A stretch of 64,000 bases of DNA, from assembly GCF_026343955.1 (NCBI RefSeq), contig NZ_JAPKNI010000001.1:682001-746000 (forward strand), in the 5' to 3' direction. This document shows, in pieces, positions 26,090-40,064 of the stretch. Position numbers and translations under genes: made by a program. This DNA is from Kaistia defluvii. Its GTDB lineage: Bacteria > Pseudomonadota > Alphaproteobacteria > Rhizobiales > Kaistiaceae. The notes under the pieces were generated by a model, which was not told the DNA's origin, searched no databases, and saw only the letters and a list, made by a program, of their open reading frames with translations. Numbering within the stretch: the stretch's first letter is position 1; every line of letters begins with the position of its first letter.

Positions 26090-26751
26090 CTTCTCCCCGA
26101 ATTCTCGGAGCGGATCCCGCAGCACCCGTCAAGAGCGGCCCCGCCGGCGGGAGATCGACCCCGCCGCAGAGGCCGGGCGCGCTCGACCGATGCCTCTGGG
26201 GCCTCCAGGCTTCGGCGCTTCCCCGGGCGAAGGGCCCGGCGGGGTCTGCGCGCCTCGATGGCGGCAAGCCCTCCTCGCACAGATCCTCCGGTTCCCGATG
26301 CCGGCCGCCGATCTCCCAATCCGGCAGCTTATGGGCCGGGGCCGAGCCCCGGCTCGGCGACCGCGATCTTCCTGCCGTCCAGCCTGCCCGGCAGGACATC
26401 GCCTCCTTCCCAGGAGATGCATGGCCCCATCCTCCCGGCGTCTTCGCCATCGAGGCTTCGTCGGCATGCCCGACCGATTCCGTCCGTTCCAGCCGCGGCG
26501 CGCGGCCGTTCTGCGGCCCGCCGATCCGCGCCTCGCCCCGCCTTTCCGTAAAGGACGGTGAAACGGCGAAAATGGACGTGAAGACAATTTCCCGGATTCC
26601 AAGATAGAGACCGCATACCCAAAGTTTCCTATCGTCAGACATCAACAATACGCACGAGCTTCCTGCGTGACGTCTTGAATTGACGGATACGCAGATCGGA
26701 TCTTCACGCGGCTGGTCCGAGTAATTTCTCCTTGTTCTGACGGAGGAAAAA
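26090..26751. other. Intergenic region upstream of the polysaccharide operon
   Basis: I see no convincing gene in these 662 bases; open readings on both strands lack family features and good starts. The left two thirds are GC-rich. From about 26570 the sequence turns markedly richer in A and T and probably holds the promoter of the polysaccharide operon. GGAGG at 26742 serves the TTG start at 26752. Confidence 0.5.
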
Positions 26752-27768
26752 TTGAAAAACATATTCGACACAACAAAGATCATTTCAAAGAGGCCGCCGG
26801 CTCGCCGAATTCTTGTCGCGGGCGGGGCGGGATTTCTAGGATCTCATCTTTGCGAACGGCTGGTCCACGAAGGCAATACCGTCATCTGCGTCGATAATTT
26901 CTCCACCGGTAGAATGGAGAACCTGAGCGATCTGCTGCGTTTCGACACGTTCAGCGTCATCCAGCACGACATCGTGGATCCCCTCGAGCTGCCCGTCGAC
27001 GAGATCTACAATCTCGCCTGCCCGGCCTCGCCACCGCATTATCAGGCGGATCCGATCCATACGCTGAAGACCAGCGTTATCGGTTCGCTCCATCTTCTGG
27101 AACTGGCGCGCAAGCATCAGGCGCGGATCTTCCAGGCCTCGACCTCGGAAGTCTATGGCGATCCCCATGTGCATCCGCAGCCGGAAGCCTATTGGGGCAA
27201 CGTCAATTCCTTCGGACCGCGCTCCTGCTACGACGAAGGCAAGCGCTCCGCGGAAACGCTGTTCTACGACTTTCACCACCAGCATGGCGTCGATATCCGC
27301 ATCGTCCGCATCTTCAACACCTATGGGCCGCGGATGCGGGCCGACGACGGCCGCGTGGTGTCGAACTTCATCGTCCAGGCGCTCCGGGGCGATGACATCA
27401 CCGTCTATGGCGACGGGTCGCAGACCCGTTCCTTCTGCTATGTCGATGACCTGATCGAAGGCTTCTGCCGGCTGATGTACAACCAGCCGGCAATCCGGAC
27501 ACCGGTCAATCTGGGCAATCCCGGCGAATTCACCGTGCGGGAACTGGCCCAGCAGATCATCCGCATGACCGGCTCGTCCTCGAAGATCGTCCATCGCCCG
27601 CTGCCGACCGACGATCCGCGCCAGCGCCGGCCCGATATCTCCGCGGCGAAACGCGACCTCGACTGGACGCCTGGCGTGGCCCTTACCGAAGGCCTGACGT
27701 CGACGATCGCCTATTTCGAGCATCAGCTGAGCCGGGCGGACGGCGAATTCGTCGAGGCAGCGCAATGA
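26752..27768 (+). CDS. UDP-glucuronate decarboxylase (UDP-xylose synthase)
   Basis: A 338-residue short-chain dehydrogenase/reductase-type enzyme that converts UDP-glucuronate to UDP-xylose with NAD+. The nucleotide-binding motif is [18 protein letters not shown] (about residues 22-40). The catalytic Tyr160-x3-Lys164 pair sits in [16 protein letters not shown], a signature of the UXS family as opposed to general epimerases, and [12 protein letters not shown] is also UXS-typical. The TTG start has GGAGG 5 bases upstream. It is the first gene of the polysaccharide operon, coupled to the epimerase by an ATGA overlap. Together with the dehydrogenase gene at 30604 it completes the route UDP-glucose to UDP-xylose. 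Confidence 0.9.
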
Positions 27769-28751
27769 GCCGGCCAGCCGTTCTCGTGGTCGGCGGCGCG
27801 GGCTTCATCGGCAGCCACACGGCCAAGCTCCTATCGAAACAGGGTTATGACCCCGTCGTCTATGACAATCTCTCGACGGGGTCGGCGGCGGCGGTGCGCT
27901 GGGGCGCGCTGGTCGAGGGCGATATCCTCGACCAGAAGAAGCTGGTCGAGACGATCGAGGCCTTCGATCCGGTCGCGGTCATCCATTTCGCCGCTTCCGC
28001 CTATGTCGGCGAGTCCGTCCAGAACCCCGCCAAATACTACCAGAACAACGTCAACGGCACGCAGTCGCTGCTCGAGGCCTGCCGCCTCGCCGGCGCGCCT
28101 CCCGTCATCTTTTCCTCCAGTTGCGCCACCTATGGCGTTCCGGATCACCTGCCGATCCGGGAAGGCGAAATCCAGCACCCGATCAACCCCTACGGACGCA
28201 CCAAGCTGATCGCCGAGCAGATGCTGGCCGACTATTCGGCGGCCTATGGCATCCGCTATGCGGCGCTTCGCTATTTCAATGCCTGCGGCGCCGACCTCGA
28301 GGGCGAACTGGGCGAAGCCCATGATCCCGAGACGCATCTGATCCCGCGCGCCATGCTCGCGGCGGCCCGCTCGATCGACTTCCTCGAAGTCTTCGGCGAC
28401 GACTACGACACGCCCGACGGCACCTGCATCCGCGACTACATCCACGTGACGGATCTGGCGCGCGCCCATGTCATGGCCGTCGAGCACCTGATCCGGGGCG
28501 GCGACAATCTCGCCGTCAACCTGGGCACCGGCCGCGGCACCTCGATCCGGGAAATCCTCGAGACGATCGGCCGCGTGACCGGCAGTCCGGTTCCGGTGGC
28601 GTTGCGGGCACGCCGGGCCGGCGACCCGCCGATCCTCTACGCCGATCCGACGCTCGCCGCAGAAAAGCTCGGCTTCCGCGTGATGCACTCCGATCTCGAT
28701 ACGATCATCCGCACGGCGGCACCGTTTTTCGGACTGACGGTGCGGCCATGA
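27765..28751 (+). CDS. UDP-sugar 4-epimerase (GalE family; UDP-glucose or UDP-xylose epimerase)
   Basis: A 328-residue NAD-dependent epimerase. It has [18 protein letters not shown], then DNLSTG, the catalytic Tyr143-x3-Lys147 (NPYGRTKL) and FSSSCATYG with the catalytic Ser. The C-terminal part has [13 protein letters not shown] and [13 protein letters not shown]. By sequence it is a GalE/ExoB-type UDP-hexose 4-epimerase. Because it lies directly downstream of UDP-xylose synthase, its real substrate may be UDP-xylose, giving UDP-L-arabinose, as in the Sinorhizobium Uxs/Uxe pair. It overlaps both neighbours by 4 bases. The substrate cannot be decided from the sequence. Confidence 0.9.
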
Positions 28752-30601
28752 AGACGCCGCGCATTCTTCCCACGACGCAGGGCGAAGAGCCGCTTCTGGT
28801 GCCGATCTTCACCGGCCGCAAGCGGGTTGAATATGTCGTGGGCGTCGCCTTCTGGGCCGCGGCCCTCATCTTCTTCTGGCAATGGTGGCTGTTCGAGGCG
28901 ACGCATACGCATCTCGTCGGGTCGGTGCTGGTCACGGCCATCCTGGCCTGGATCACCATCCTGCCGGTCTATTTCATCACGATTTTCTACAAGGCGCGCC
29001 GGCCGAACGGCCCGCTCCGCATTCCCGCCGGCAGCCGGGTCGCCATGGTCGTGACCAAGGCGCCATCCGAGCCCTTCCCCATCGTCGCCGAGACGTTGCT
29101 GGCAATGCTGGCGCAGAATGTGCCGCACGATACCTGGCTCGCCGACGAGGATCCGTCTCCCGAGACGCTCGACTGGTGCCGCGAGCACGGCGTGTTCGTC
29201 TCCACACGCAAGGGGCGCGCCGACTATCATCGCCAGACCTGGCCGCGCCGCACGCGCTGCAAGGAAGGCAACTTGGCCTTCTTCTACGACACCTATGGCT
29301 ATGAGCGGTATGACTTCGTCTCCCAGCTCGATGCCGACCACGTGCCGGATCTGGACTATCTGTACAACATGCTGCGGCCCTTCGCGGACCCGGCCATCGG
29401 CTATGTGTCCGCTCCCAGCATCTGTGATCGCAATGCGCATGAGAGCTGGTCGGCGCGCGGCCGCCTCTATGTCGAGGCAAGCATGCATGGCTCGCTGCAG
29501 GCCGGCTATAATGGCGGCTATGCCCCGGTCTGCATCGGATCCCATTATGCGGTGCGCACGGCCGCGCTGAAGCAGATCGGCGGCCTCGGCCCGGAGCTCG
29601 CCGAGGATCACTCGACGACGCTGTTCATGAACGCGCATGGCTGGCGCGGAACACATGCCCTCGACGCCATTGCCCATGGCGACGGCCCGCGAACCTTCGC
29701 CGATCTCGTGACGCAGGAATTCCAGTGGTCGCGCAGCCTGGTGATGATCCTGCTGCAGTATTCGCCGACGCTGGTGAAGCGGCTGCCGCTGCGCCTGAAG
29801 GTCCAGTTCCTGTTCTCGCAGCTCTGGTACCCGCTCTATGCGTTCTTCCTGGCGGCGACGTTCCTGCTGCCCGTGACGGTGCTGCTCTACGGCGCCAATT
29901 TCGTGACGGTCACCTATCCGGACTTCCTGCTCCATTTCATGCCGCAATCGCTCATGATCCTGGTGCTGGCGTTCTGGTGGCGGTCGAGCCGGACATTCCG
30001 TCCGGTCGACGGCAAGATCTTCAGCTGGGAAGCGATGCTGTTCCTGCTGGCGCGCTGGCCCTGGGTGATGGCCGGCACGATCGCCGCCTTCCGCGACTGG
30101 GCAACCGGCTCGTTCGTCGACTTCCGGGTCACGCCCAAGGGGGCCTCCGAAGTCGATCCGCTGCCGTTCCGCGTCCTGGCGCCCTACGTCGTGATCATCG
30201 CTCTCTCGATCCTGCCGGTTCTCCTTGTCCAGGATGCCTTCGAGACACGCGGCTTCTACGTCTTCGCCATCATCAATACCTGCTTCTACCTGGTTCTGAT
30301 GGCCGTGATCGTGCTGCGGCATTCCCGCGAGAACAACATTCGCATGCGCAGCCGCGCCTATCGTCCCGCGCTGGCGAGCGGTCTCGTCACGCTGTGCGCA
30401 ATCGTCAGTTTCGCCACCATCGAACGCGGCCGGGACGGCATCGAGGCGCTGGCCTGGGGCACGAAGAGCTTCTCCATCTTCGACGACCGCTTCTCGGTTG
30501 CGGGCGCGGGCGTAGGGGGACATGCGGTCCACAAGACCGTCTTCAATCCGCGTTGGCGGGGCAGTTCAACCAGTCCTCAGGACGAGCGGGAGCAAGACTG
30601 A
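28748..30601 (+). CDS. Cellulose-synthase-like family 2 glycosyltransferase (processive membrane synthase)
   Basis: A 617-residue inner-membrane enzyme. Two N-terminal helices (about 30-75) precede a GT-2 catalytic domain of about 300 residues with the processive-synthase motifs: Asp195-Ala-Asp197 (SQLDADHVPDLDY), the Glu286-Asp287 pair (LAEDHSTTLFM) and a Q-x-x-x-W element at Gln323-Trp327 (TQEFQWSRSLVMI), here lacking the usual Arg before Trp. Several membrane helices follow (about 360-560). The layout matches cellulose/hyaluronan/curdlan-type synthases that polymerise and export a glycan. There is no PilZ domain, so direct cyclic-di-GMP control is not seen. The donor is likely one of the UDP-sugars made by its neighbours. 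Confidence 0.9.
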   Translation: MKTPRILPTTQGEEPLLVPIFTGRKRVEYVVGVAFWAAALIFFWQWWLFEATHTHLVGSVLVTAILAWITILPVYFITIFYKARRPNGPLRIPAGSRVAMVVTKAPSEPFPIVAETLLAMLAQNVPHDTWLADEDPSPETLDWCREHGVFVSTRKGRADYHRQTWPRRTRCKEGNLAFFYDTYGYERYDFVSQLDADHVPDLDYLYNMLRPFADPAIGYVSAPSICDRNAHESWSARGRLYVEASMHGSLQAGYNGGYAPVCIGSHYAVRTAALKQIGGLGPELAEDHSTTLFMNAHGWRGTHALDAIAHGDGPRTFADLVTQEFQWSRSLVMILLQYSPTLVKRLPLRLKVQFLFSQLWYPLYAFFLAATFLLPVTVLLYGANFVTVTYPDFLLHFMPQSLMILVLAFWWRSSRTFRPVDGKIFSWEAMLFLLARWPWVMAGTIAAFRDWATGSFVDFRVTPKGASEVDPLPFRVLAPYVVIIALSILPVLLVQDAFETRGFYVFAIINTCFYLVLMAVIVLRHSRENNIRMRSRAYRPALASGLVTLCAIVSFATIERGRDGIEALAWGTKSFSIFDDRFSVAGAGVGGHAVHKTVFNPRWRGSSTSPQDEREQD

Positions 30602-30603
30602 TC

Positions 30604-32034
30604 ATGAAAATCGCGGTCATTGGAACGGGTTACGTCGGATTGGTCAGCGGCACCTGCTTTGCCGCCTGGGGCCACGAGGTCGTCTGCGTCGACAAGGACG
30701 CGCAGAAGATCGCCGGCCTGAAGCGCGGCGTCCTGCCGATCTACGAGCCAGGACTGGACGATCTGGTGGCGCGCAACGCCGGCGCGGGCCGGCTCGGCTT
30801 CACCTGCCATCTCGCCGAGGCCCTGAAGGGCGCCGCCATCGTGCTGATCGCGGTCGGGACACCGACCCGCGCCAACCATGGCGACGCGGATCTCTCCTTC
30901 GTCTACATGGCCGCCCGCGAACTGGCGCCCCATCTCGAAAAGGGCGCCGTGATCGTCGTCAAGTCGACGGTCCCCGTCGGCACCGGCGACGTCGTCGAGA
31001 AGATCGTCGGCTCGATCCGGCCGGCCGGATCGTTCTCGGTCGCCTCCAACCCCGAATTCCTGCGCGAGGGGGCCGCCATCCGCGATTTTCTCGAACCCGA
31101 TCGCGTGGTGATCGGCGTCGAGGACGACTGCGCGCGCAAGGTGCTGATGTCGCTGTATGGCCCGCCGCTGCAGGCGCGCGAAACCCCCATCGTGGTGACT
31201 CGGCGCCGCACGTCCGAGCTGATCAAATATGCGGCCAACGCGTTCCTGGCGACCAAGATCACCTTCATCAACGAACTGGCCGACCTTTGCGAGGAAGTCG
31301 GCAGCGATGTCGGCGAACTGGCGCTCGGCATGGGGCTGGACAAGCGCATTGGCGCCAGCTTCCTGAATGCCGGCCCCGGCTATGGCGGCTCCTGCTTCCC
31401 GAAGGACACGCTGGCGCTGCTGCGCACCGCACAGGATCACGGCGTCTCTCTGCGGCTGGTGGAGGAAACCGTCACCGCCAATGAAGCGCGCAAGCGCCGC
31501 ATGGCGCTCAAGGTGATGGATGCGCTCGGCGGCGACGTCGAAGGCGCGACCATCGCGGTGTTGGGCCTTACCTTCAAGCCCGACACGGACGACATGCGCG
31601 ACGCGCCGTCCGTGCCGCTGATCGAAACCCTGCAGCGCTTCGGCGCCCGGATCCGCGCCTACGATCCCGTCGGCGCGGAAAACGCCAGTCGGGTCCTTTC
31701 CGACGTGGAGTTTTGCAAGGATGCGCATGAGTGCGTCCGCGGCGCCGATGCGGCGGTGGTCGTGACGGAATGGGACAGCATCCGCGGCCTCGATCTCGTG
31801 CGCGTCAGAAGCGCGATGCGGCAACCGGTGCTGATCGACCTCCGCAACGCCCTGCCGCGGGCGATTGCCGAGGATCTCGGCTTCCACGTCTCGGCGATTG
31901 GCCGTCCCGCGCCCACGCGGCAGGAGGCTGCCGGAAAAGGCCCCCACGCGAACGATCATCGCTCGCCCCGGCGCGTGGGCGGAATGAGAAGCCATGCACG
32001 AATGGGAGGTTCGAATGAGCGGATGGAGATCTAA
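30604..32034 (+). CDS. ugd: UDP-glucose 6-dehydrogenase
   Basis: A 476-residue enzyme that oxidises UDP-glucose to UDP-glucuronate with two NAD+. The N-terminal domain is MKIAVIGTGYVGLVSGTCFA with the substrate loop VGTPTRANHGDADLS. Catalytic Cys264 lies in NAGPGYGGSCFPKDTLALL, and the UDP-binding domain has GLTFKPDTDDMRDAPS. The family core ends near FHVSAIGRPAP (about residue 438). The last 35-40 residues are a poorly conserved, charged tail that runs into the start of the DUF995 gene (20-base overlap) and may come from loss of an earlier stop. It follows the synthase gene by 2 bases and supplies the precursor for UDP-xylose synthase. Confidence 0.93.
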   Translation: MKIAVIGTGYVGLVSGTCFAAWGHEVVCVDKDAQKIAGLKRGVLPIYEPGLDDLVARNAGAGRLGFTCHLAEALKGAAIVLIAVGTPTRANHGDADLSFVYMAARELAPHLEKGAVIVVKSTVPVGTGDVVEKIVGSIRPAGSFSVASNPEFLREGAAIRDFLEPDRVVIGVEDDCARKVLMSLYGPPLQARETPIVVTRRRTSELIKYAANAFLATKITFINELADLCEEVGSDVGELALGMGLDKRIGASFLNAGPGYGGSCFPKDTLALLRTAQDHGVSLRLVEETVTANEARKRRMALKVMDALGGDVEGATIAVLGLTFKPDTDDMRDAPSVPLIETLQRFGARIRAYDPVGAENASRVLSDVEFCKDAHECVRGADAAVVVTEWDSIRGLDLVRVRSAMRQPVLIDLRNALPRAIAEDLGFHVSAIGRPAPTRQEAAGKGPHANDHRSPRRVGGMRSHARMGGSNERMEI

Positions 32035-32641
32035 AGCGGGCCGGTCCCGGTCGGGATCGACGAGTCTGGCCCTGGCCGTTGTGGCAGCGTCGACGATTGC
32101 CGGCGTGACCATGGCCGGCGCGGCCTCGGCCCCCGGCCGTCCCGCCACGGCCAACACGGCAACCGCACCGGCCGCCTCCGCCAGCGAGGCGAGTCCGCCC
32201 GCGGGCACCATCCCCATGGCGGCTTCCGAGCTCTACCTGCTCTATCGGAACAAGAGCTGGCAATGGGCGGACGGCGCAGGACGGATGGCCGACGAGGATC
32301 GCCGGTTCACCGCCTGGGTCGAGAGCGACAAGGGCAAATCCTGGGCCGAAGGCCGCTGGCTGGTCACGGATGCCGGCACGATGTGCCTCAAGGCGGACTG
32401 GCACAGCGCCGAGGGGGTATTCCCGGGCAAGACCTGCTTCGCCCACCGCATCGGCGACGGGACGATCTACCAGAGGCAGGTGCCGGACGGCGCCTGGTAC
32501 GTGTTTCGCCACGCCGACGGCCGCGCCGACGACGAAGCGAAGAAGCTCGTCTCCGCCGATCTGGTCACCGACCACATCGACAGCCTGAAGCCGGTGCGGC
32601 GCCCGAAACAATCGCCGATGAAACAACAGAGCAGGAAGTGA
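32015..32641 (+). CDS. Secreted DUF995 protein (first copy)
   Basis: A 208-residue exported protein. The signal sequence (STSLALAVVAASTIAGVTMAGAASA) is followed by an Ala/Pro/Ser-rich linker and a DUF995 domain: AASELYLLYRNKSWQWADGAGRM, then FTAWVESDKGKSWAEGRWLVTDAGTMCLKADWHS, KTCFAHRIGDGTIYQRQVPDGAWYVF. Two Cys (in TMCLKA and KTCFAH) are probably disulfide-bonded. ATG 32015 has GGGAGG upstream. DUF995 has no settled function but is common near rhizobial polysaccharide genes. A second copy lies at 33733, on the far side of the GH26-like gene. A role in handling or retaining the polymer is an inference. Confidence 0.85.
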   Translation: MSGWRSKAGRSRSGSTSLALAVVAASTIAGVTMAGAASAPGRPATANTATAPAASASEASPPAGTIPMAASELYLLYRNKSWQWADGAGRMADEDRRFTAWVESDKGKSWAEGRWLVTDAGTMCLKADWHSAEGVFPGKTCFAHRIGDGTIYQRQVPDGAWYVFRHADGRADDEAKKLVSADLVTDHIDSLKPVRRPKQSPMKQQSRK

Positions 32642-32647
32642 GGGGCC

Positions 32648-33619
32648 ATGCAGTCACGACTCTTTATCGCAACGCTTTTGCTGTGCGGGGCGGCCTTCCC
32701 CGGCACGCTCCATGCCGCCAGCGGCGTCTCCGGCGCCAATGTCGACAACCGCAGCCAGTTTCAGGACAAGCGGCCTGTCATCGCCACGCCGTCGGTAACC
32801 CCCGGCGCCTATGACCCGCATGGCGACTATGCCAATGACGCCAACTCGAAGATCGAGCATCTCTTCCTGCCCTGGGAAGACGTCGATCTCGAAACGCTCG
32901 CCTTGGCGGACCAGTACGCCAGCGAGCGCGGACGCGCATTGCTGATTACCGTCGAGCCCTGGTCATGGGCCCGCGACTGGCGCGTCGCGCCGGACGACCT
33001 GCTACGGGGCATTTTGAACGGGCGCTATGATGCCAACATGGCATCCGTCTGTTCGGCCGCGTCCGAGCTGAAGAGCCCGGTCACGATCCGCTGGGCCCAG
33101 GAAATGGACGACAAATCCGGACAGTTCACATGGTCGTACTGGAAGCCGGACGACTACATCAAGGCCTACCGGCATGCGGTGGATGTGTGCCGCAAGGAAC
33201 TCCCCTCCGCCCAGTACATGTGGTCGCCCCGGGGCGATGAGGGCCTGGAAGCCTACTATCCGGGCGATGACTACGTCGACTCGATCGGCCTCTCGGTCTT
33301 CGGCTACCAGCCCTATGACCAGTTGACCACCGGGCGCGACACCACCTTCGTCGAACGCACCAAGCCTGGATACGACCGGGTGAAAGGCTTCGGCAAGCCG
33401 ATCGCCATCGCCGAACTGGGCTATGAAGGCAAGGACGACTATGTCCGCGCCTGGGCGCTGGCGGCCAACCGTCCGCATGCCGAATTTCCGGCCATGACGG
33501 CGGTGGTCTATTTCAACGATCGCGAAGTCTATCCCTGGCCCAAGGGCGTTGGACGGCCGGACTGGCGCGTCGCCAACCATCCGCTGGACTGGCCCGCTCC
33601 GTCGGATCCGCTGGAGTAG
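32648..33619 (+). CDS. Secreted glycoside hydrolase, GH26-like
   Basis: A 323-residue exported enzyme. A signal peptide (LFIATLLLCGAAFPGTLHA) precedes a TIM-barrel domain. The acid/base candidate is Glu152 in TIRWAQEMDDKSG, and the nucleophile candidate is Glu256 in PIAIAELGYEGKDD, at the ends of strands 4 and 7 as in clan GH-A enzymes. Preceding features, LLITVEPWSWA and a Trp/Tyr-rich SYWKPDDYIKAYRHAVDVCR, match GH26 beta-mannanase-like proteins. It sits in the polysaccharide operon 6 bases after the first DUF995 gene, so it most likely trims or releases the operon's own glycan in the periplasm or outside. Confidence 0.85.
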   Translation: MQSRLFIATLLLCGAAFPGTLHAASGVSGANVDNRSQFQDKRPVIATPSVTPGAYDPHGDYANDANSKIEHLFLPWEDVDLETLALADQYASERGRALLITVEPWSWARDWRVAPDDLLRGILNGRYDANMASVCSAASELKSPVTIRWAQEMDDKSGQFTWSYWKPDDYIKAYRHAVDVCRKELPSAQYMWSPRGDEGLEAYYPGDDYVDSIGLSVFGYQPYDQLTTGRDTTFVERTKPGYDRVKGFGKPIAIAELGYEGKDDYVRAWALAANRPHAEFPAMTAVVYFNDREVYPWPKGVGRPDWRVANHPLDWPAPSDPLE

Positions 33620-33732
33620 CCGGCGATCCCCCGGGGTCGCGGCCATCTCGAACCTGGAATGAATGCGCGTCCGGCCTTGGAAGACCGCCCGGTCTGGCCC
33701 GGATCCGCCCCAAGGATGAATAGGAGAGAAAA

Positions 33733-34245
33733 TTGTTTCCGATCCGATTCACGATCATGAGCGCGGCGCTGTCCACGCTCTGCCTCGCCGGCGCCAGCGC
33801 CGCAACCCCATCCAGGACCGACGACGGGACGGCGAAGCTCGCTGCGGCCGCAGCGCCGATGAGTGCCCGGGCGCTGGAGGCGCTGTATTCCGGCAAGACC
33901 TGGAAATGGAAGGATGGCGGCGGCTATTTCTCCAGCGACCGCCACCGCTTCGCCGGCTGGTCGCAGAAGGGCGATGCCTGGTCCTATGGCAAGGGCCGCT
34001 GGCAGGTGAACAATAGCGGCAAGCTCTGCATGCCGGCGGTCTGGTACTACCGGACCGGCTATTCCAACAACGTCACCTGCTTCCTGCATCGCGAAAAGGA
34101 TGGCGTGATCTACCAGAAGCCGGCGCTTGGCGGGTCCTGGTACGTGTTTCAGCACAATCCCGTCCGCCGCAGCGACGAGGTTCGCAAGCTGGTTCCCGGT
34201 GATCGGGTGAGCAAGCCGCTCGCCCGGCTCCAGGCGGGTTCCTGA
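33733..34245 (+). CDS. Secreted DUF995 protein (second copy)
   Basis: A 170-residue exported paralogue of the protein at 32015. It has the signal sequence IMSAALSTLCLAGASAA, then the DUF995 domain: ARALEALYSGKTWKWKDGGGYFSS, RFAGWSQKGDAWSYGKGRWQVNNSGKLCMPAVWYY, NVTCFLHREKDGVIYQKPALGGSWYVFQHN. The pair of Cys is at the same places as in the first copy. The TTG start at 33733 has TAGGAGAG upstream; ATG 33757 is an alternative that leaves a shorter signal peptide. The two copies are clearly divergent, so the duplication is not recent. Confidence 0.83.
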   Translation: MFPIRFTIMSAALSTLCLAGASAATPSRTDDGTAKLAAAAAPMSARALEALYSGKTWKWKDGGGYFSSDRHRFAGWSQKGDAWSYGKGRWQVNNSGKLCMPAVWYYRTGYSNNVTCFLHREKDGVIYQKPALGGSWYVFQHNPVRRSDEVRKLVPGDRVSKPLARLQAGS

Positions 34246-34382: not shown

Positions 34383-34697
34383 TCAGAAAAAGTTGCGGCG
34401 GAAGCATCGCGATTGCTGGCCAAAACCGCTGGGCGTGCAGACATAGGGCGTGCCTCCGCGATAGGCGTCGGCGGAAATTTTCAGGATCTTGCCGGCGCGG
34501 CCCTTGTTGTAGCGAACCTCGCCGTTGACCCGATACTTGACGAGGTAGACGGAACGCACCTCGCCACCCTTCTTGCGGGCCGGTTCGGCCTGTGCGCCGC
34601 CTTGCAGCGACAAGGACAAGGCCATTCCGGTGGCGGCGATCGCCAGCCACTTCCGGCAGTTCCAACGAAGATGCTGAAGCCGTTCGAGGTGTTTCAC
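34383..34697 (-). CDS. Small secreted basic protein of unknown function
   Basis: A 104-residue protein that I do not recognise. An N-terminal signal (WLAIAATGMALSLSLQGGAQAE) follows a basic leader, then comes a Lys/Arg-rich mature part with GEVRSVYLVKYRVNGEVRYNKGRAGKILKISADAYRGGTPYVCTPSGFGQQSRCFRRNFF. Two Cys near the C-terminus could pair. The start may be 34697 or a later codon, as the leader before the signal core is long. It is convergent with the DUF995 gene and may belong functionally to the polysaccharide locus, but nothing proves it. Confidence 0.6.
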   Translation of the reverse strand: MKHLERLQHLRWNCRKWLAIAATGMALSLSLQGGAQAEPARKKGGEVRSVYLVKYRVNGEVRYNKGRAGKILKISADAYRGGTPYVCTPSGFGQQSRCFRRNFF

Positions 34698-35030
34698 AGG
34701 GTTGTCTCCAGATTGTGGATCTGGGGAATTCCTAGGGGCCGTCCGCTAAGAATCCTGCCGGGAATTGGCTCCAATTTTCATCAATACCCATCCAGGACTT
34801 CCGCAACGGCACGGGCAACGCCCCCCCCGGCGCATGGCGGCTGGCAAGCCATCGTCCGGCACGCCTCACCGCCGGCGCCAGGCCCCGCACGGTCTGCCCT
34901 CGAGCCCGAACGAAACCCGCCCCCCCCTGACTGGATGCCTCCTCCTGTGGCGAAGATCACTGAGGGCGCAGGGAGGTCATGCCTATTCTGCCCAGCTTGA
35001 AAGGAGAGCGCGGCTCTTCTAGGTTCTCAA
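34698..35030. other. Intergenic region, no gene seen
   Basis: The 333 bases between the divergent small-protein gene and the AraC gene contain no supported gene. Long C-runs (around 34820-34830 and 34918-34927) are the only unusual feature. Confidence 0.4.
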
Positions 35031-36191
35031 ATGGATTGGCAGGGTATTGCTGTGACAGCGGATGGGCACAAGGAACCTTACCCTCAGTTCGATTTTGTCG
35101 AACGCCGATTGCTGCCTCGCGTATCGATGGCCCCGCTTGGAGACAACGAGACCGAATGCGCCAATCTGGTTCCGCAGCATTTCACCACGCATACTCTCCC
35201 TCGGGCCCAGCAGTTCCAGGCGTGGCAGGACCACATCTCGCCTCTGCTTGACGTTCGCCTGCCCGAGGACGTCGTTGCCGACGACGGCTTCCTGGCGTCG
35301 CAGACATGCTGGAATCTCGGCGGAATGCTGCTCGTGCAGCAATCGACGGCGACGCATAGCTATGAGCGGTCTCCCGAAAAGGTTCGCTTCAGCCCCATCG
35401 ACCATTGGATGATAACCCTGCTGCGGGCCGGTCACACCTGGACGGCGGTGGATGGGCGAGTCGCCGAGAACAAGCCCGGCATGATCGCCATCCGCTCGCT
35501 CGGCCAGCCCTTCCGCGGCCGCGCGCTGGCAACGGAATCCGTCTCCCTCATCATTCCCATCGATCATTTCGCGGCCCATGGCGGCCTGCCGGGCGCAAGC
35601 GACCACACCGTTCTCGTCGGCCACCGCGCCAAGCTGCTGATCGAATTCGTCGCCAGCGTCGAGGAAAGCCTCAGCCGGTTGACCATCGACGATCTCGCCA
35701 GCGTGAGAACCTCCCTGATCGAGATCGTCTTCAACACCGTGTCCCATCTGGTGGGGCCGAACAGCGAGCGGGATTTCACCGCGAACACCAGCCTGATGAC
35801 GCGGGCGCGCCGGTTCATCCATGGCCACCTCCTGTCGGACGATCTGAGCCCGGAGGTTCTGAGCCGGGAATTGGCGATTTCGCGCACCCGCCTCTACGAA
35901 TTGTTCGAGAGCTTCGGCGGGGTGCAGAAATACATCCGCGAGCGGCGCCTGCTCGCCGCCCACGCCATGCTGGCGGACGGGTCCGAATACCGGAAGATCG
36001 CCGATATCGCGACAGACTTCGGCTTCGATTCCGCCGCCAATTTCAGCCGAGCCTTCACCCAGCAGTTCGGCTATAGCCCGAGCCTCGTGCGGAAGCTGCG
36101 GGCGGGCCTGGACACCCATTTGAAGACGCCTTCCAGGCTTGGGAGCGACGAAAACTTCGGCGCCTTGTTGCAAACACTCGAGCTTCGGTAA
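35031..36191 (+). CDS. AraC-family transcriptional regulator
   Basis: A 386-residue regulator, longer than typical. An N-terminal AraC-binding-like (cupin) sensor of about 230 residues (QQFQAWQDHISPLLDVRLPED, later RFSPIDHWMITLLRAGHTW) is followed by the two helix-turn-helix DNA-binding domain: SPEVLSRELAISRTRLYELFESFGGVQKYIRERRLLAAHAML, then IADIATDFGFDSAANFSRAFTQQFGYSPS, which carries the AraC signature. The start at 35031 (ATGGATTGG) has no strong ribosome site. The gene is convergent with the arylsulfatase gene and close to the whole sulfatase/outer-membrane block, which it may control. Its ligand is unknown. Confidence 0.9.
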   Translation: MDWQGIAVTADGHKEPYPQFDFVERRLLPRVSMAPLGDNETECANLVPQHFTTHTLPRAQQFQAWQDHISPLLDVRLPEDVVADDGFLASQTCWNLGGMLLVQQSTATHSYERSPEKVRFSPIDHWMITLLRAGHTWTAVDGRVAENKPGMIAIRSLGQPFRGRALATESVSLIIPIDHFAAHGGLPGASDHTVLVGHRAKLLIEFVASVEESLSRLTIDDLASVRTSLIEIVFNTVSHLVGPNSERDFTANTSLMTRARRFIHGHLLSDDLSPEVLSRELAISRTRLYELFESFGGVQKYIRERRLLAAHAMLADGSEYRKIADIATDFGFDSAANFSRAFTQQFGYSPSLVRKLRAGLDTHLKTPSRLGSDENFGALLQTLELR

Positions 36192-36314: not shown

Positions 36315-38684
36315 CTAGTTGAGCAACTCCACGACGACCGCCTCGAGCTTTCCCTGGAAGGGGAAGGCGCCCGAATAGTCGGAGACGACCGGCGAGCCGG
36401 TGTCGCTGCCGACGTCCTGATTTTCAGACAGCGAGTATTTGAACGGCGTCGTCTGTTCGATCTTGCCGGATCCCGCCGGCTTTCCGTCAACCGACAGGTC
36501 GACAATGCCGCTCTTCCCCATCTCTTTCCCGCCCTCATAGGTGAAGGTCATCTTGAGATCATGTTTGCCAGCGGGCACGGTCTGGTCGCTGCGAACGACA
36601 TACTCCTTCACATCAATGAAGTTGTGCGCAACGACGAGCTTGCCATCCTTCATGTAGAAGCCCCACCCGCCGGTATTGCCGCCTTGCGTGAAGATCATGC
36701 CGTTGTTGTCATCCTGGATGTCGACCTTGGCGGACACGCTGAACGACTTGTTCTTGAGATCCGGGGCGGCCGCCTCGGGCAGGCCGGTGAAGTTGCCGGC
36801 ATAGACAAACGTCTTGCGGTCTCCGGCAAGATTGGGCTTGCCCGTAAGTTCGCCGCTGAAGCGCTCGGGGCCGCGCCAGTCGAGCGGAAGCGCGTTGTTC
36901 ACCCGCGCCTCGGCCCACCAGAGGGCGGTCAACTCGTCCAGCTTGGACGGGTCGTCCTGCGCGAGGTCTTTGCCCTGGGAGAAGTCCTTGTCCAGATTGT
37001 AGAGTTCCCACCTGGCTTTGAACGGGTCGAACGCCCCGCGCTCGGCCTGCCAGGGCTCAAACGACATGGATGCCGCCCACCAGCCATCCTTGTAGATGCC
37101 CCGATTGGCAAACATCTCGAAATACTGGCTGGTCCGCATCTCGCCCGCTCCCGCATCGGTCATGGTGTCGAGGAAGCTGCGGCCCTGGATGGGCTCCTGC
37201 GATGTGCCGTTCACGCTGCGCGGCTCGTCGATACCGGCCGCCGCGAGCAGTGTGGGCGCGATGTCGATGACGTGGGTGAACTGCGAACGGATCGCATGCT
37301 GGTCCTTGATCCTGGCGGGCCATTTCACGATCATCGGGTTGCGAACGCCGCCCAGGTGGCTGGCAACCTGCTTGGTCCACTGGAACGGCGTGTTCATCGC
37401 CCAGGCCCATGCCGCCGGGAAGTGGTTGAAGTGCTTCTCCGTCCCGATTTCGTCGATCAGCGGCAGCATCTGCTGCCAGGTCATCTGGTAGAGGTTGAAG
37501 ATGGCGTTCTCGTTCAACGTCCCGTCGAACCCGCCCTCGGCCGAGGCGCCATTGTCGCCGATGATGTAGAGGATCATCGTGTTGGAAGCGTCGGGAAGCG
37601 TGGCGACGTAGTCGAGCACGCGGCCGACCTGCTGATCGACGTGGTCGCCATAGGCGGCGAAGACCTCCATCATCCGTGAATAGAGCTCTTTCTGCTCGGC
37701 GCTTGCGCTGTCCCAGGCCGGCAGGCTCGCCGGCCGCGGCGTCAGCACCGCATCCGGCGGGATGACGCCGAGGCGTTTCTGGCGCTCGAAGGTCTGCCTG
37801 CGGTATTCGTCCCATCCCATGTCGAACTTGCCCTTGTATTTGGCGATCAGTTCCTTCGGAGCTTGGTGCGGGGCATGGGTCGCAGCCGGCGCGAGATAGA
37901 GGAACCAGGGTTTTCCCGGCTCGACCGCCTCGGTCATTTTTAGCCATTGGATCGATTTGTCGGCGAGATCGGTGCTCAGGAAGTAATTCGGGTCCTGCGG
38001 CGTGCCGACGGGCGTCTGGTTCTCGAACAGATACGGCTTGATCTGGTTGATGTCGCCGCCCATGAAGCCGTAGAAGTAGTCGAAGCCGAGACCGTTCGGC
38101 CAATGGTCAAAAGGCCCCATCGCGCTGGTCTCGTAGATCGGCGTGTTGTGGTTCTTGCCGAGCCAGGCCGTCGCGTAACCGTTCTGTCGCAGCACCTCGG
38201 CGACCGTCGCCGTGCGCTTTGGGATAATGCCGGTATAGCCGTCATAGCCGGTGGCGAGCTCGGTGATGATGCCGGTTCCCGAAGCCTGGTGGTTGCGTCC
38301 CGTCAGCAGGGCCGCCCGCGTCGGCGAACAGAGCGCGGTAGTGTGGAATCGATTGTACAGGAGCCCTTCCTTCGCCAGCCTTTCCAGGTTCAGCGACGGA
38401 ACGCCGCCACCGGTCACGGAGAACTGGCCGAAACCGACATCGTCCAGCAGGACGAGCAGGATGTTGGGCGCGCCGTCGGGCGCCTGGACGGCCTTCGGGA
38501 AGGCCGCCGGATCCGAGTCCTTGAAGGTCGTTCCGACCGAGCCCCGAAAGCGAGGTTCCGCATAGGGCAGCACCGATTGCCCGCGCGATGTATCGGCGTC
38601 GCGCGCCAACGCTGCGCCGGAATGCATCGCCACCAGCACGGACACGCCAAACAACAGAGATTTTGAGACAAACGATCCCAACAT
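36315..38684 (-). CDS. Periplasmic arylsulfatase with CSPTR formylglycine motif
   Basis: A 789-residue exported sulfatase. It has the signal sequence SLLFGVSVLVAMHSGAALA, then the sulfatase domain starting at APNILLVLLDDVGFGQFSVTGGG with the metal-binding Asp pair. The formylglycine motif is Cys119-Ser-Pro-Thr-Arg followed by AALLTGRNHQ, the standard C-x-P-x-R. Further on are LGKNHNTP, THAPHQAPKELIAKYKG and IIGDNGASAEGG with the C-terminal metal Asp/Asn. A long C-terminal beta-rich part (from about 600) is shared with large PF00884 arylsulfatases. It needs a formylglycine-generating enzyme, which is not in the window. ATG 38684 has GGGAGG upstream. It releases sulfate from aryl or sugar sulfate esters. 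Confidence 0.92.
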   Translation of the reverse strand: MLGSFVSKSLLFGVSVLVAMHSGAALARDADTSRGQSVLPYAEPRFRGSVGTTFKDSDPAAFPKAVQAPDGAPNILLVLLDDVGFGQFSVTGGGVPSLNLERLAKEGLLYNRFHTTALCSPTRAALLTGRNHQASGTGIITELATGYDGYTGIIPKRTATVAEVLRQNGYATAWLGKNHNTPIYETSAMGPFDHWPNGLGFDYFYGFMGGDINQIKPYLFENQTPVGTPQDPNYFLSTDLADKSIQWLKMTEAVEPGKPWFLYLAPAATHAPHQAPKELIAKYKGKFDMGWDEYRRQTFERQKRLGVIPPDAVLTPRPASLPAWDSASAEQKELYSRMMEVFAAYGDHVDQQVGRVLDYVATLPDASNTMILYIIGDNGASAEGGFDGTLNENAIFNLYQMTWQQMLPLIDEIGTEKHFNHFPAAWAWAMNTPFQWTKQVASHLGGVRNPMIVKWPARIKDQHAIRSQFTHVIDIAPTLLAAAGIDEPRSVNGTSQEPIQGRSFLDTMTDAGAGEMRTSQYFEMFANRGIYKDGWWAASMSFEPWQAERGAFDPFKARWELYNLDKDFSQGKDLAQDDPSKLDELTALWWAEARVNNALPLDWRGPERFSGELTGKPNLAGDRKTFVYAGNFTGLPEAAAPDLKNKSFSVSAKVDIQDDNNGMIFTQGGNTGGWGFYMKDGKLVVAHNFIDVKEYVVRSDQTVPAGKHDLKMTFTYEGGKEMGKSGIVDLSVDGKPAGSGKIEQTTPFKYSLSENQDVGSDTGSPVVSDYSGAFPFQGKLEAVVVELLN

Positions 38685-39125
38685 GGCTCTCGGCCTCCCA
38701 TGGAAACGAAGGAACACGGATCTCAGCCCATGAACCGACGGATGAGATCACGACACACGCGCCGGCCGGCCGGCCGGCGACAACGACGCGCGGGATGGCC
38801 GATCCGCCCCATGTCCGGCTGGCCACCCTGCCCGCTCGCCCTCCATCCATCGCCGCCGCACGACGCTTGACGGTCACGCCGGATGCCCCCCGCTGACAGG
38901 CATGAAGACCCGCCACGGACATGGACAGCGACAGAACCGCCGGAGCCCAGTCGATACGTCCCCGCACCAGCCCGGCGCAGGCATTGCCCATCCAGCCAAT
39001 GAATAAACTACAGAATTCAATCTATAGAACAGACTTATTATTCATCACCTTACGTTGAGTTTCGTCTGGACGCATATTGATCCAGCATGTATATTGAAGA
39101 TATTGCGGTGACGGAATGCATCACA
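38685..39125. promoter_or_regulatory. AT-rich divergent control region of the sulfatase locus
   Basis: The 441 bases between the divergent sulfatase and outer-membrane genes hold no supported gene. From about 39000 to 39110 the sequence is unusually AT-rich. It contains an 8-bp inverted repeat, ATGAATAA (38999-39006) with TTATTCAT (39038-39045), spaced by 31 bases. It is probably the promoter and operator region for the rightward genes. Confidence 0.45.
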
Positions 39126-40064
39126 ATGAAACATCCGATCACATTCGTATCAATAGTCGTGAGCCTTCTGGCGCTTTGCCCGACGGGCGGCCTGGCGACC
39201 GAGGCCGCGTTGGGGCGCTATACAGTGGGCCTGTTCGCCGTGCCGGGCGCCGGCATCGTCCCGCCCTCTCCCAACGTCTACTGGCAGAGTTCGAGCTTCG
39301 TCTATTCCGGCTCGGCGGCAGCTGGCCTCGAGATCCCGATTGGTGGAACCGCGCAATTCGGCATATCTGCCGAGGTCATCGCGACCGCCATGACGGGCCT
39401 CTGGGTGCCCGACATCAAGCTGGGTGACAATCTGACGTTTGCCATCAGCGGTACGATCCCGGCGGGCTACATGAAGGTGGATGCGGCGCTCGGCCCGCTC
39501 GGCGCATCCGACCATGTCACGGATATCGGCGACATCATGGTGGCGCCGACGATCGGCTGGAACGAGGGGGCGAACTTCATCTCGGCCGCGCTTCGGATCT
39601 ATGCCCCCACCGGAGGCTGGGAGAAGAATGCGCTGGCCAATATCGGCCTGAACTATTGGACGTTCTCGCCGACGCTCTCCTATACCCACCTGGTACCGCA
39701 GCAAGGGATCGATTTTACCGTGGTTGCGGGCCTCGACATCAATACCGAGAATACCACGACCGACTATACCAGCGGCCTGCTGGCCCATGTCGACGCGGTG
39801 CTCAGCAAGAAATTCGAGAACAATGTCGGCATCGGCATTTTCGCGTCGGCGCTGCTGCAACTGACCAAGGATCAGGGCGGCCCCCTCGTGGACCGGCTGG
39901 ACGGGTTCGAGGGCCGCTCTTTCGCGATCGGCCCTGTGCTGACCTATACCGGCGGCACCAAGGAAAAGCCGGTTAACTTCAGCGTCAACTGGGCGCCCGA
40001 ATTCGGCGTCAAGAACCGGCTCGAAGGCAACGCTGTCTATCTCAACATAGCGGGCTCGTTCTAG
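39126..40064 (+). CDS. Outer-membrane barrel-like protein, phenol_MetA_deg-type (first copy)
   Basis: A 312-residue exported protein. A signal sequence (ITFVSIVVSLLALCPTGGLATE) is followed by alternating beta-strand patterns through to the C-terminal aromatic residue (YLNIAGSF), typical of outer-membrane barrels. Segments such as LTFAISGTIPAGYMKVDAALGPLGASDHVTDIGDIMVAPTIGWNEG and LSYTHLVPQQGIDFTVVAGLDINTENTTTDYTSG match the family annotated as MetA-pathway phenol-degradation or transporter proteins. It may let a hydrophobic or aryl substrate cross the outer membrane. ATG 39126 is chosen because the signal peptide then starts correctly. Confidence 0.78.
   Translation: MKHPITFVSIVVSLLALCPTGGLATEAALGRYTVGLFAVPGAGIVPPSPNVYWQSSSFVYSGSAAAGLEIPIGGTAQFGISAEVIATAMTGLWVPDIKLGDNLTFAISGTIPAGYMKVDAALGPLGASDHVTDIGDIMVAPTIGWNEGANFISAALRIYAPTGGWEKNALANIGLNYWTFSPTLSYTHLVPQQGIDFTVVAGLDINTENTTTDYTSGLLAHVDAVLSKKFENNVGIGIFASALLQLTKDQGGPLVDRLDGFEGRSFAIGPVLTYTGGTKEKPVNFSVNWAPEFGVKNRLEGNAVYLNIAGSF

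What the first reader, a model, noticed from the sequence alone, without database searches (positions are those of the whole stretch)
26752..34245. Compact single-synthase polysaccharide operon predicted to make a pentose- or uronic-acid-containing glycan
Seen: UDP-glucuronate decarboxylase, GalE-type epimerase, one processive GT-2 synthase and UDP-glucose dehydrogenase overlap by 4 bases or are spaced by 2, followed by a secreted DUF995 protein, a secreted GH26-like hydrolase and another DUF995 protein. Known: Ugd makes UDP-GlcA, UXS makes UDP-xylose, and GalE-like Uxe can make UDP-arabinose (Sinorhizobium). Inference: the operon makes and exports a polymer whose building block comes from this UDP-pentose/uronate line, with the GH26 enzyme trimming it and DUF995 proteins handling it. 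I know of no described system with this exact gene set.
Basis: partly seen in the sequence, partly recalled or inferred. Interest (0 to 1): 0.72.

Follow-up and report, generated by a model that had tools for sequence, protein, structure and literature searches.

The report
Arabinose-polymer operon in Kaistia
This gene set is a relative of a known rhizobial operon that builds an arabinose-containing surface polymer on a c-di-GMP cue; here it also carries its own precursor gene, and beside it lie a conserved upstream element and a small secreted protein that travels with the operon.

Summary
The seven genes are real, with the stated coordinates and spacing. UXS, Uxe, synthase, first DUF995 and GH26 are 71, 69, 69, 44 and 58% identical to that locus, the second DUF995 38%. 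The AraC-type gene at 35031-36191 is an orthologue of CuxR, the c-di-GMP-responsive APS activator (PDB 5nla, E 8e-86).

The seven-gene order occurs in 34 of 54 loci examined, one with only a ugd fragment.

Found in no paper passage I saw: (1) a 44-bp element upstream of uxs, in 38 of 53 loci, 37 with cuxR in the locus; (2) a small secreted protein (34383-34697, minus strand) with a C-[TS]PSGFG-x4-C loop, in 17 of 397 genomes of the order, all among the 21 with ApsS; (3) DUF995's confident model without PDB match. The primary APS papers were not held, so (1) or (2) may be partly known.

The parts
26570..26613 (+). conserved 44-bp element, consensus AAATGgACG....GAtAA.TTTccGGATTc...GATAaCGACa; proposed CuxR operator of the operon (inference)
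   Evidence: found in 22 of 23 representative loci, leave-one-out scores far above shuffles; 38 of 53 loci, 37 of them with cuxR in the locus; one match in the own genome at up to 3 mismatches; held-out second operon of the L034 genome has it beside cuxR
26752..27768 (+). uxs: UDP-glucuronate decarboxylase (UDP-xylose synthase), TTG start
   Evidence: 71% to the S. meliloti uxs1-position ORF; Pfam Epimerase/GDP_Man_Dehyd; GGAGG upstream of TTG
27765..28751 (+). uxe: UDP-xylose/UDP-glucose 4-epimerase, GalE-type
   Evidence: 69% to the S. meliloti Uxe-position ORF; groups with APS-locus Uxe in a partly resolved tree
28748..30601 (+). apsS: membrane GT2 synthase, distantly cellulose-synthase-like
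   Evidence: 69% to S. meliloti ApsS; PDB hits to BcsA at E 7e-16 to 1e-15; seven hydrophobic segments
30604..32034 (+). ugd: UDP-glucose 6-dehydrogenase, absent from the S. meliloti operon
   Evidence: Pfam UDPG_MGDP_dh N, central and C domains; intact gene in 38 of 53 loci
31994..32641 (+). apsH1: DUF995 protein, probably exported
   Evidence: PF06191 E 2e-55; one N-terminal hydrophobic segment
32648..33619 (+). apsE: GH26 hydrolase, probably exported, with E152 and E256 conserved
   Evidence: PF02156; E152 and E256 invariant in 19 sequences; Foldseek best matches GH26 lichenase; N-terminal hydrophobic segment
33733..34245 (+). apsH2: DUF995 protein, probably exported
   Evidence: PF06191 E 9e-54; model pLDDT 90.7 without PDB match
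34383..34697 (-). small protein, probably exported, ending in a PY[IV]C[TS]PSGFG-x4-C motif; proposed eighth component
   Evidence: 24 aligned members; 17 of 397 genomes, all within the 21 ApsS-positive, same picture with the C-terminus alone; no Pfam family
35031..36191 (+). cuxR orthologue: AraC-type c-di-GMP-responsive activator (a GTG start near 35052 is also possible)
   Evidence: PDB 5nla E 8e-86; 44% to the S. meliloti locus regulator; ERRxxxR in 28 of 30 aligned rows, the other 2 lack that end in the ORF picked

Best explanation
This is an APS (arabinose-containing polysaccharide) operon of the S. meliloti kind. When c-di-GMP rises, the CuxR orthologue binds it and switches on the operon, probably at the 44-bp element that begins 182 bp upstream of uxs (inferred). 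Ugd turns UDP-glucose into UDP-glucuronate, UXS decarboxylates it to UDP-xylose, and Uxe epimerises that to UDP-L-arabinose (roles by orthology). The membrane GT2 synthase ApsS polymerises and extrudes the chain, as a cellulose synthase does (by homology). The exported GH26 enzyme trims it, and two small beta-rich DUF995 proteins help outside the cytoplasm (inferred). Ugd makes the pathway self-sufficient from UDP-glucose. The small PSGFG-motif protein on the opposite strand belongs to the same system (inferred from linkage); its role is most likely at the cell surface. Product: a surface polymer used for aggregation and biofilm.
For: Gene-by-gene orthology and order with S. meliloti 1021 pSymB. 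Published operon, c-di-GMP and CuxR control (passages of PMC7902896, PMC9495663, PMC8546604). CuxR orthologue; that CuxR uses an RxxxR motif is in passages of PMC9045272. Seven-gene order in 34 of 54 loci. Uxe tree. GH26 glutamates invariant in 19 rows. Element and cuxR in the locus: 37 with both, 15 with neither, 1 element only, 0 cuxR only, of 53, plus the held-out case.
Against: No sugar analysis exists for this organism that I know of and none can be done here. A GalE-type epimerase cannot be assigned to pentose or hexose by sequence alone, and the Uxe tree is only partly resolved: APS-locus copies L038 and L081 fall with the GalE group and own-genome copy L004 falls inside the APS side. 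ugd is extra relative to the published operon. The element was found, not shown to bind CuxR; L040 has it with no close CuxR in its genome (best relative 25%).
Confidence: 0.87

Rival explanations
1. The in-operon ugd marks a changed product: the synthase takes UDP-glucuronate or UDP-xylose as well, so the polymer holds uronate or xylose, unlike S. meliloti APS.
For: An intact ugd is at 38 of 53 loci and absent from the S. meliloti locus; UDP-glucuronate and UDP-xylose are both made on the way.
Against: Synthases with and without ugd interleave: S. meliloti, L010 and L067 nest inside ugd-bearing lineages, and L012/L013 have zero-length synthase branches although L013 has lost ugd. A product switch would be expected to follow the synthase, not ugd.
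Confidence: 0.12
2. The epimerase works as a GalE in vivo and the polymer is a galactan or galactose-containing glycan.
For: The protein passes the GalE NCBIfam cut-off (397 bits against 262). S. [quoted passage not shown]
Against: UXS and Ugd would then have no role, yet UXS and Uxe genes are adjacent in 54 of 54 loci; the own genome has three other GalE-like genes.
Confidence: 0.08
3. The operon supplies nucleotide sugars and a glycan for the cell envelope (LPS or a capsule) rather than a free synthase-dependent exopolysaccharide.
For: UDP-pentoses can be shared substrates (general knowledge).
Against: A membrane GT2 synthase plus an exported hydrolase is the layout of synthase-dependent secretion (recalled); no Wzx/Wzy or ABC gene among the operon's own genes.
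Confidence: 0.04

Closest known systems
[quoted passage not shown] 2017, 2019; seen only through passages of PMC7902896 and others)
   Same: six genes in the same order and strand, CuxR orthologue at the locus; the 44-bp element and the small PSGFG protein are also present in the S. meliloti locus L007
   Different: ugd inserted between apsS and apsH1; cuxR downstream on the same strand instead of upstream and divergent; protein identities 38-71%
Seven-gene locus of Phyllobacterium zundukense plasmid NZ_CP104972 (L008)
   Same: identical seven-gene order with ugd; cuxR and the small protein also present
   Different: cuxR upstream and divergent; a GGDEF gene lies nearby
Mixed-linkage beta-glucan synthase BgsA and cellulose synthase BcsA systems
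   Same: membrane GT2 synthase and c-di-GMP-dependent exopolysaccharide (passages); the GH26 model is nearest a GH26 lichenase
   Different: BcsA is a distant match (60 bits); UDP-pentose genes, DUF995 and CuxR are not parts of those systems (recalled)

Membership tests
APS operon (S. meliloti kind) | uxs-uxe-apsS-DUF995-GH26-DUF995 collinear and co-directional | tested here: met
   with ugd as an insertion
APS operon (S. meliloti kind) | synthase orthologous to ApsS rather than to another GT2 | tested here: met
   69% over 99% of the length (hit H27); ApsS tree
APS operon (S. meliloti kind) | CuxR-type activator gene at the locus | tested here: met
APS operon (S. meliloti kind) | transcription raised by c-di-GMP through CuxR | not testable with these tools
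   the RxxxR stretch and shared upstream element are indirect
APS operon (S. meliloti kind) | product is an arabinose-containing polymer | not testable with these tools
   needs sugar analysis
APS operon (S. meliloti kind) | epimerase acts on UDP-xylose | tested here: inconclusive
   groups with the S. meliloti Uxe, but the tree is partly resolved; activity not testable
CuxR (AraC-type c-di-GMP effector) | near full-length homology to the solved CuxR structure with N-terminal RxxxR | tested here: met
   query 23-367 on 5nla 21-361; ERRxxxR in 28 of 30 rows. Which of CuxR's RxxxR stretches binds the ligand was not seen in a source; taken as this one because it is conserved
GH26 | family profile match, GH26-like fold and two conserved Glu | tested here: met
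   Pfam 26.6 bits over cut-off 20.2; E152 and E256 invariant in 19 rows; Foldseek E 1.9e-12 to GH26 lichenase although mean pLDDT is only 68.5. That these two Glu are the catalytic pair is recalled family knowledge
Cellulose synthase BcsA | TIGR03030 CelA cut-off | tested here: not met
   62.3 bits against a cut-off of 699.1

The most novel reading that the evidence does not exclude
APS loci contain an unrecognised dedicated eighth component: a family of small exported proteins or lipoproteins whose C-terminus is a Cys-bracketed PSGFG loop. In the 397-genome sample it occurs only with ApsS, so it probably binds, anchors or caps the arabinose polymer at the surface; together with DUF995 (a beta-rich fold without PDB match) it would make a dedicated export and attachment kit. 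The 44-bp element would be the CuxR operator, the signature by which c-di-GMP-controlled copies can be told from uncontrolled paralogues such as the one in Nitratireductor luteus.
Probability: 0.5. Interest if true: 0.55.

Novelty: new member of a known kind. Interest (0 to 1): 0.42.

Why it matters
It turns a 'novel operon' into a testable member of a known pathway: an arabinose-polymer operon known from rhizobia is present in ten genera of the sampled order and, in most of the loci seen here (38 of 53; the loci are not an even sample), comes with its own UDP-glucuronate supply; the reference S. meliloti operon looks like a form that lost ugd. The small PSGFG protein and the 44-bp element give new handles: a gene that should be knocked out next to the aps genes, and a search motif for CuxR-controlled operons. 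DUF995, a family of unknown function, gets a clear biological setting and a confident model.

Tried and rejected
Small protein as a general exported family: not supported in this order. The whole profile and the C-terminal 30 residues alone found strong matches only in ApsS-positive genomes. In one search the other 8 of 25 genomes had E 0.002 to 0.009, chance-like, though one of them (G264, E 0.007) is ApsS-positive and the hit lies 3 kb from apsS.

CuxR element upstream of the small gene: looked for and not found (22 upstream stretches); that gene has a different, weaker conserved upstream stretch, which I cannot assign.

tblastx of window flanks against loci was swamped by composition-driven matches and not used. 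Promoter and terminator scan: no more matches than shuffles. The first whole-genome pattern for the element was written one base out of register and found nothing; the corrected one found one site. The GH26 model is of modest confidence, so no substrate is read from it. An early automatic search for the element by a regular expression also found nothing because it was badly written; the weight matrix replaced it.

Papers: the searches were run on the open library. I saw passages of five papers and only listings of the rest. None of what I saw tells of the small gene, of the element, or of a ugd-bearing form. Schaper 2017 and 2019 were not held, so these points may be in them. PMC9495663 speaks of a supplementary figure of an APS-like operon in Rhizobium etli that I did not see.

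Full report
What is there. The window lies in a 4.9-Mb genome. Two genomes of the same genus have contigs of exactly the lengths of Kaistia adipata and K. granuli records (573137 and 396348 bases), so the organism is most likely a Kaistia (inference).

It is a known kind of operon. A library search led to PMC7902896, whose passages describe the S. [quoted passage not shown] passages only). PMC9495663 and PMC8546604 passages tell of CuxR activating APS. I fetched the S. meliloti 1021 locus and compared it gene by gene: UXS 71%, Uxe 69%, GT2 69%, first DUF995 44%, GH26 58%. The second S. meliloti DUF995 is 38% identical to the window's second; its best match was the window's first, at 44%. The primary papers (Schaper 2017, 2019) were not held; anything beyond the passages cited is recalled.

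The AraC-type protein at 35031-36191 matches the solved CuxR structure 5nla (named CuxR in PMC7499043 passages) along most of its length (E 8e-86) and the S. meliloti locus regulator at 44%. An N-terminal ERRxxxR stretch is kept in 28 of 30 aligned orthologues; in the other two (L018, L039) the ORF picked lacks that end. PMC9045272 passages state that CuxR binds c-di-GMP through an RxxxR motif; I did not see which one.

The seven-gene form is widespread. Of 54 loci examined by tblastn, 34 have the full order (the window included, and L015 with only a ugd fragment), 2 have the S. meliloti six-gene order (L007, L010), and 18 have other layouts or miss genes, some perhaps because the contig or fetched stretch ends. 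They are not an even sample. In 397 sampled genomes of the order, 21 have ApsS at E <= 1e-100, in 10 of 142 genera. The window's genus has 11 genomes in that sample, 4 of them positive, so the operon is accessory. In 385 genomes drawn from the class only the own genome matched, although Paracoccus and Thalassovita loci with 53-56% synthases were found elsewhere.

ugd. In a tree of 53 synthases the ugd-less S. meliloti, L010 and L067 rows sit inside ugd-bearing lineages; the label needs 6 changes, at least 3 forced by well-supported branches; some deep branches are long and unsure. Two Mesorhizobium loci show recent loss: L013 and L015 lack about 1.4 and 1.1 kb relative to L012, with 98-100% identical flanks. 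So ugd is probably old in the main group and has been lost more than once, as expected if other Ugd genes can stand in; the own genome has another Ugd, another UXS and three GalE-like genes.

A conserved element upstream of uxs. A 44-bp stretch at 26570-26613 is shared by 22 of 23 representative loci; leave-one-out scores were 30 to 57 bits in those 22, against at most 7.3 in 50 shuffles each; the failure is L034. Over 53 loci it is present in 38: 37 with cuxR in the locus (over 80 bits; in L010 only a fragment of cuxR) and L040 without. The 15 loci without the element lack cuxR in the locus; one of them, L071, has a weak 53-bit relative. Fisher P is 2.6e-12, not corrected for relatedness, and the matrix was trained on cuxR-bearing loci. 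Held-out test: the genome of L034 has a close cuxR on another contig, and there it stands beside a second aps operon (uxs-uxe-apsS-ugd-GH26-DUF995 in the stretch fetched) whose uxs has the element at 50.7 bits. For the other 14 element-less loci I did not look for cuxR elsewhere in the genome. In the own genome the degenerate core matches once, at this place. The element holds two GATAA-like half-sites 20 bp apart, which would suit an AraC-type dimer (inference). L040's genome has only a 25% regulator relative, a result against a strict link.

A small exported protein. The opposite-strand frame 34383-34697 encodes 104 residues with an N-terminal export-type segment by eye (it did not pass the simple hydropathy cut); relatives have either that or a lipobox-like cysteine (by eye). 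The C-terminus keeps C, P, S, G, F, G and a second C in all 24 aligned rows. No Pfam family matches. In the same 397 genomes a profile finds it in 17, all among the 21 ApsS-positive and none of the 376 others (Fisher 2e-26, not corrected for relatedness). All 20 matches lie on the same contig within 9 kb of apsS by the coordinates. A profile of the last 30 residues alone gives the same picture. The profiles were built from aps loci, so distant unlinked relatives could be missed. The four ApsS-positive genomes without a match are G098, G224, G250 and G264, with 55-59% synthases. Among the 54 loci a copy was seen in 43.

DUF995 and GH26. DUF995 is found in 27 of 397 genomes; strong matches (E below 1e-20) are in 19 genomes, all ApsS-positive, and 8 weaker ones are in ApsS-negative genomes. 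G357 and G372 have ApsS without a DUF995 match, and in G098 and G224 the DUF995 gene is on another contig than apsS. The model of the second DUF995 is confident (pLDDT 90.7), mostly beta strands, with no significant PDB match (best E 0.25, TM 0.30). The GH26 has invariant E152 and E256 (19 rows) and is nearest GH26 lichenase by fold, on a model of mean pLDDT 68.5.

How it probably works. Shown here: gene content, order, orthology, and conservation of the regulator, the element and the small gene. By orthology: UDP-glucose to UDP-glucuronate to UDP-xylose to UDP-arabinose, then polymerisation by ApsS. Inferred: c-di-GMP switching through CuxR at the 44-bp element; trimming by GH26; a surface role for DUF995 and the PSGFG protein. 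From recalled carbohydrate chemistry, UDP-L-arabinopyranose polymerised by an inverting GT2 would give alpha-L-arabinopyranosyl links, equatorial like the links that GH26 enzymes cut; this is a prediction only.

Verdict. A new member of the known APS kind, in the ugd-bearing form that is the commoner one in the loci seen.

Noticed in passing
window 34733-34784 (upstream of the minus-strand small gene): A second conserved stretch, TT.atgaaAATT.TCa..a.ttTt...ccgg....TTAA, precedes the small gene; clearly above shuffles in 16 of 24 loci in leave-one-out scoring. It is not the uxs element.
   Followed up: partly
L010 (NC_010865.1, pSmeSM11b): S. meliloti SM11 carries an APS operon on a plasmid typed as conjugative, with transposase genes around it and only a fragment of cuxR; its pSymB record also has an ApsS match (H34).
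   Followed up: partly
L034 and L103 (Nitratireductor luteus genome): One genome with two aps operons: one with cuxR and the element, one with neither.
   Followed up: yes
L008:12988-13989: A GGDEF gene lies next to the seven-gene operon in Phyllobacterium zundukense, a possible local source of c-di-GMP.
   Followed up: no
L033:14448-15638 and L034:16518-17741: An extra GH26-like gene on the opposite strand beside the operon.
   Followed up: no
L076 and L078: Rearranged loci in which the synthase, GH26 and UXS-Uxe point in different directions; the small protein has two and three matches in these two genomes.
   Followed up: no
window 36315-38717 and 39087-40064: A sulfatase with a concanavalin-like domain and a Phenol_MetA_deg protein follow cuxR.
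   Followed up: no
L039 (Brucella oryzae): Several reading frames of the locus (synthase, GH26, regulator) are split in this assembly; described only.
   Followed up: no
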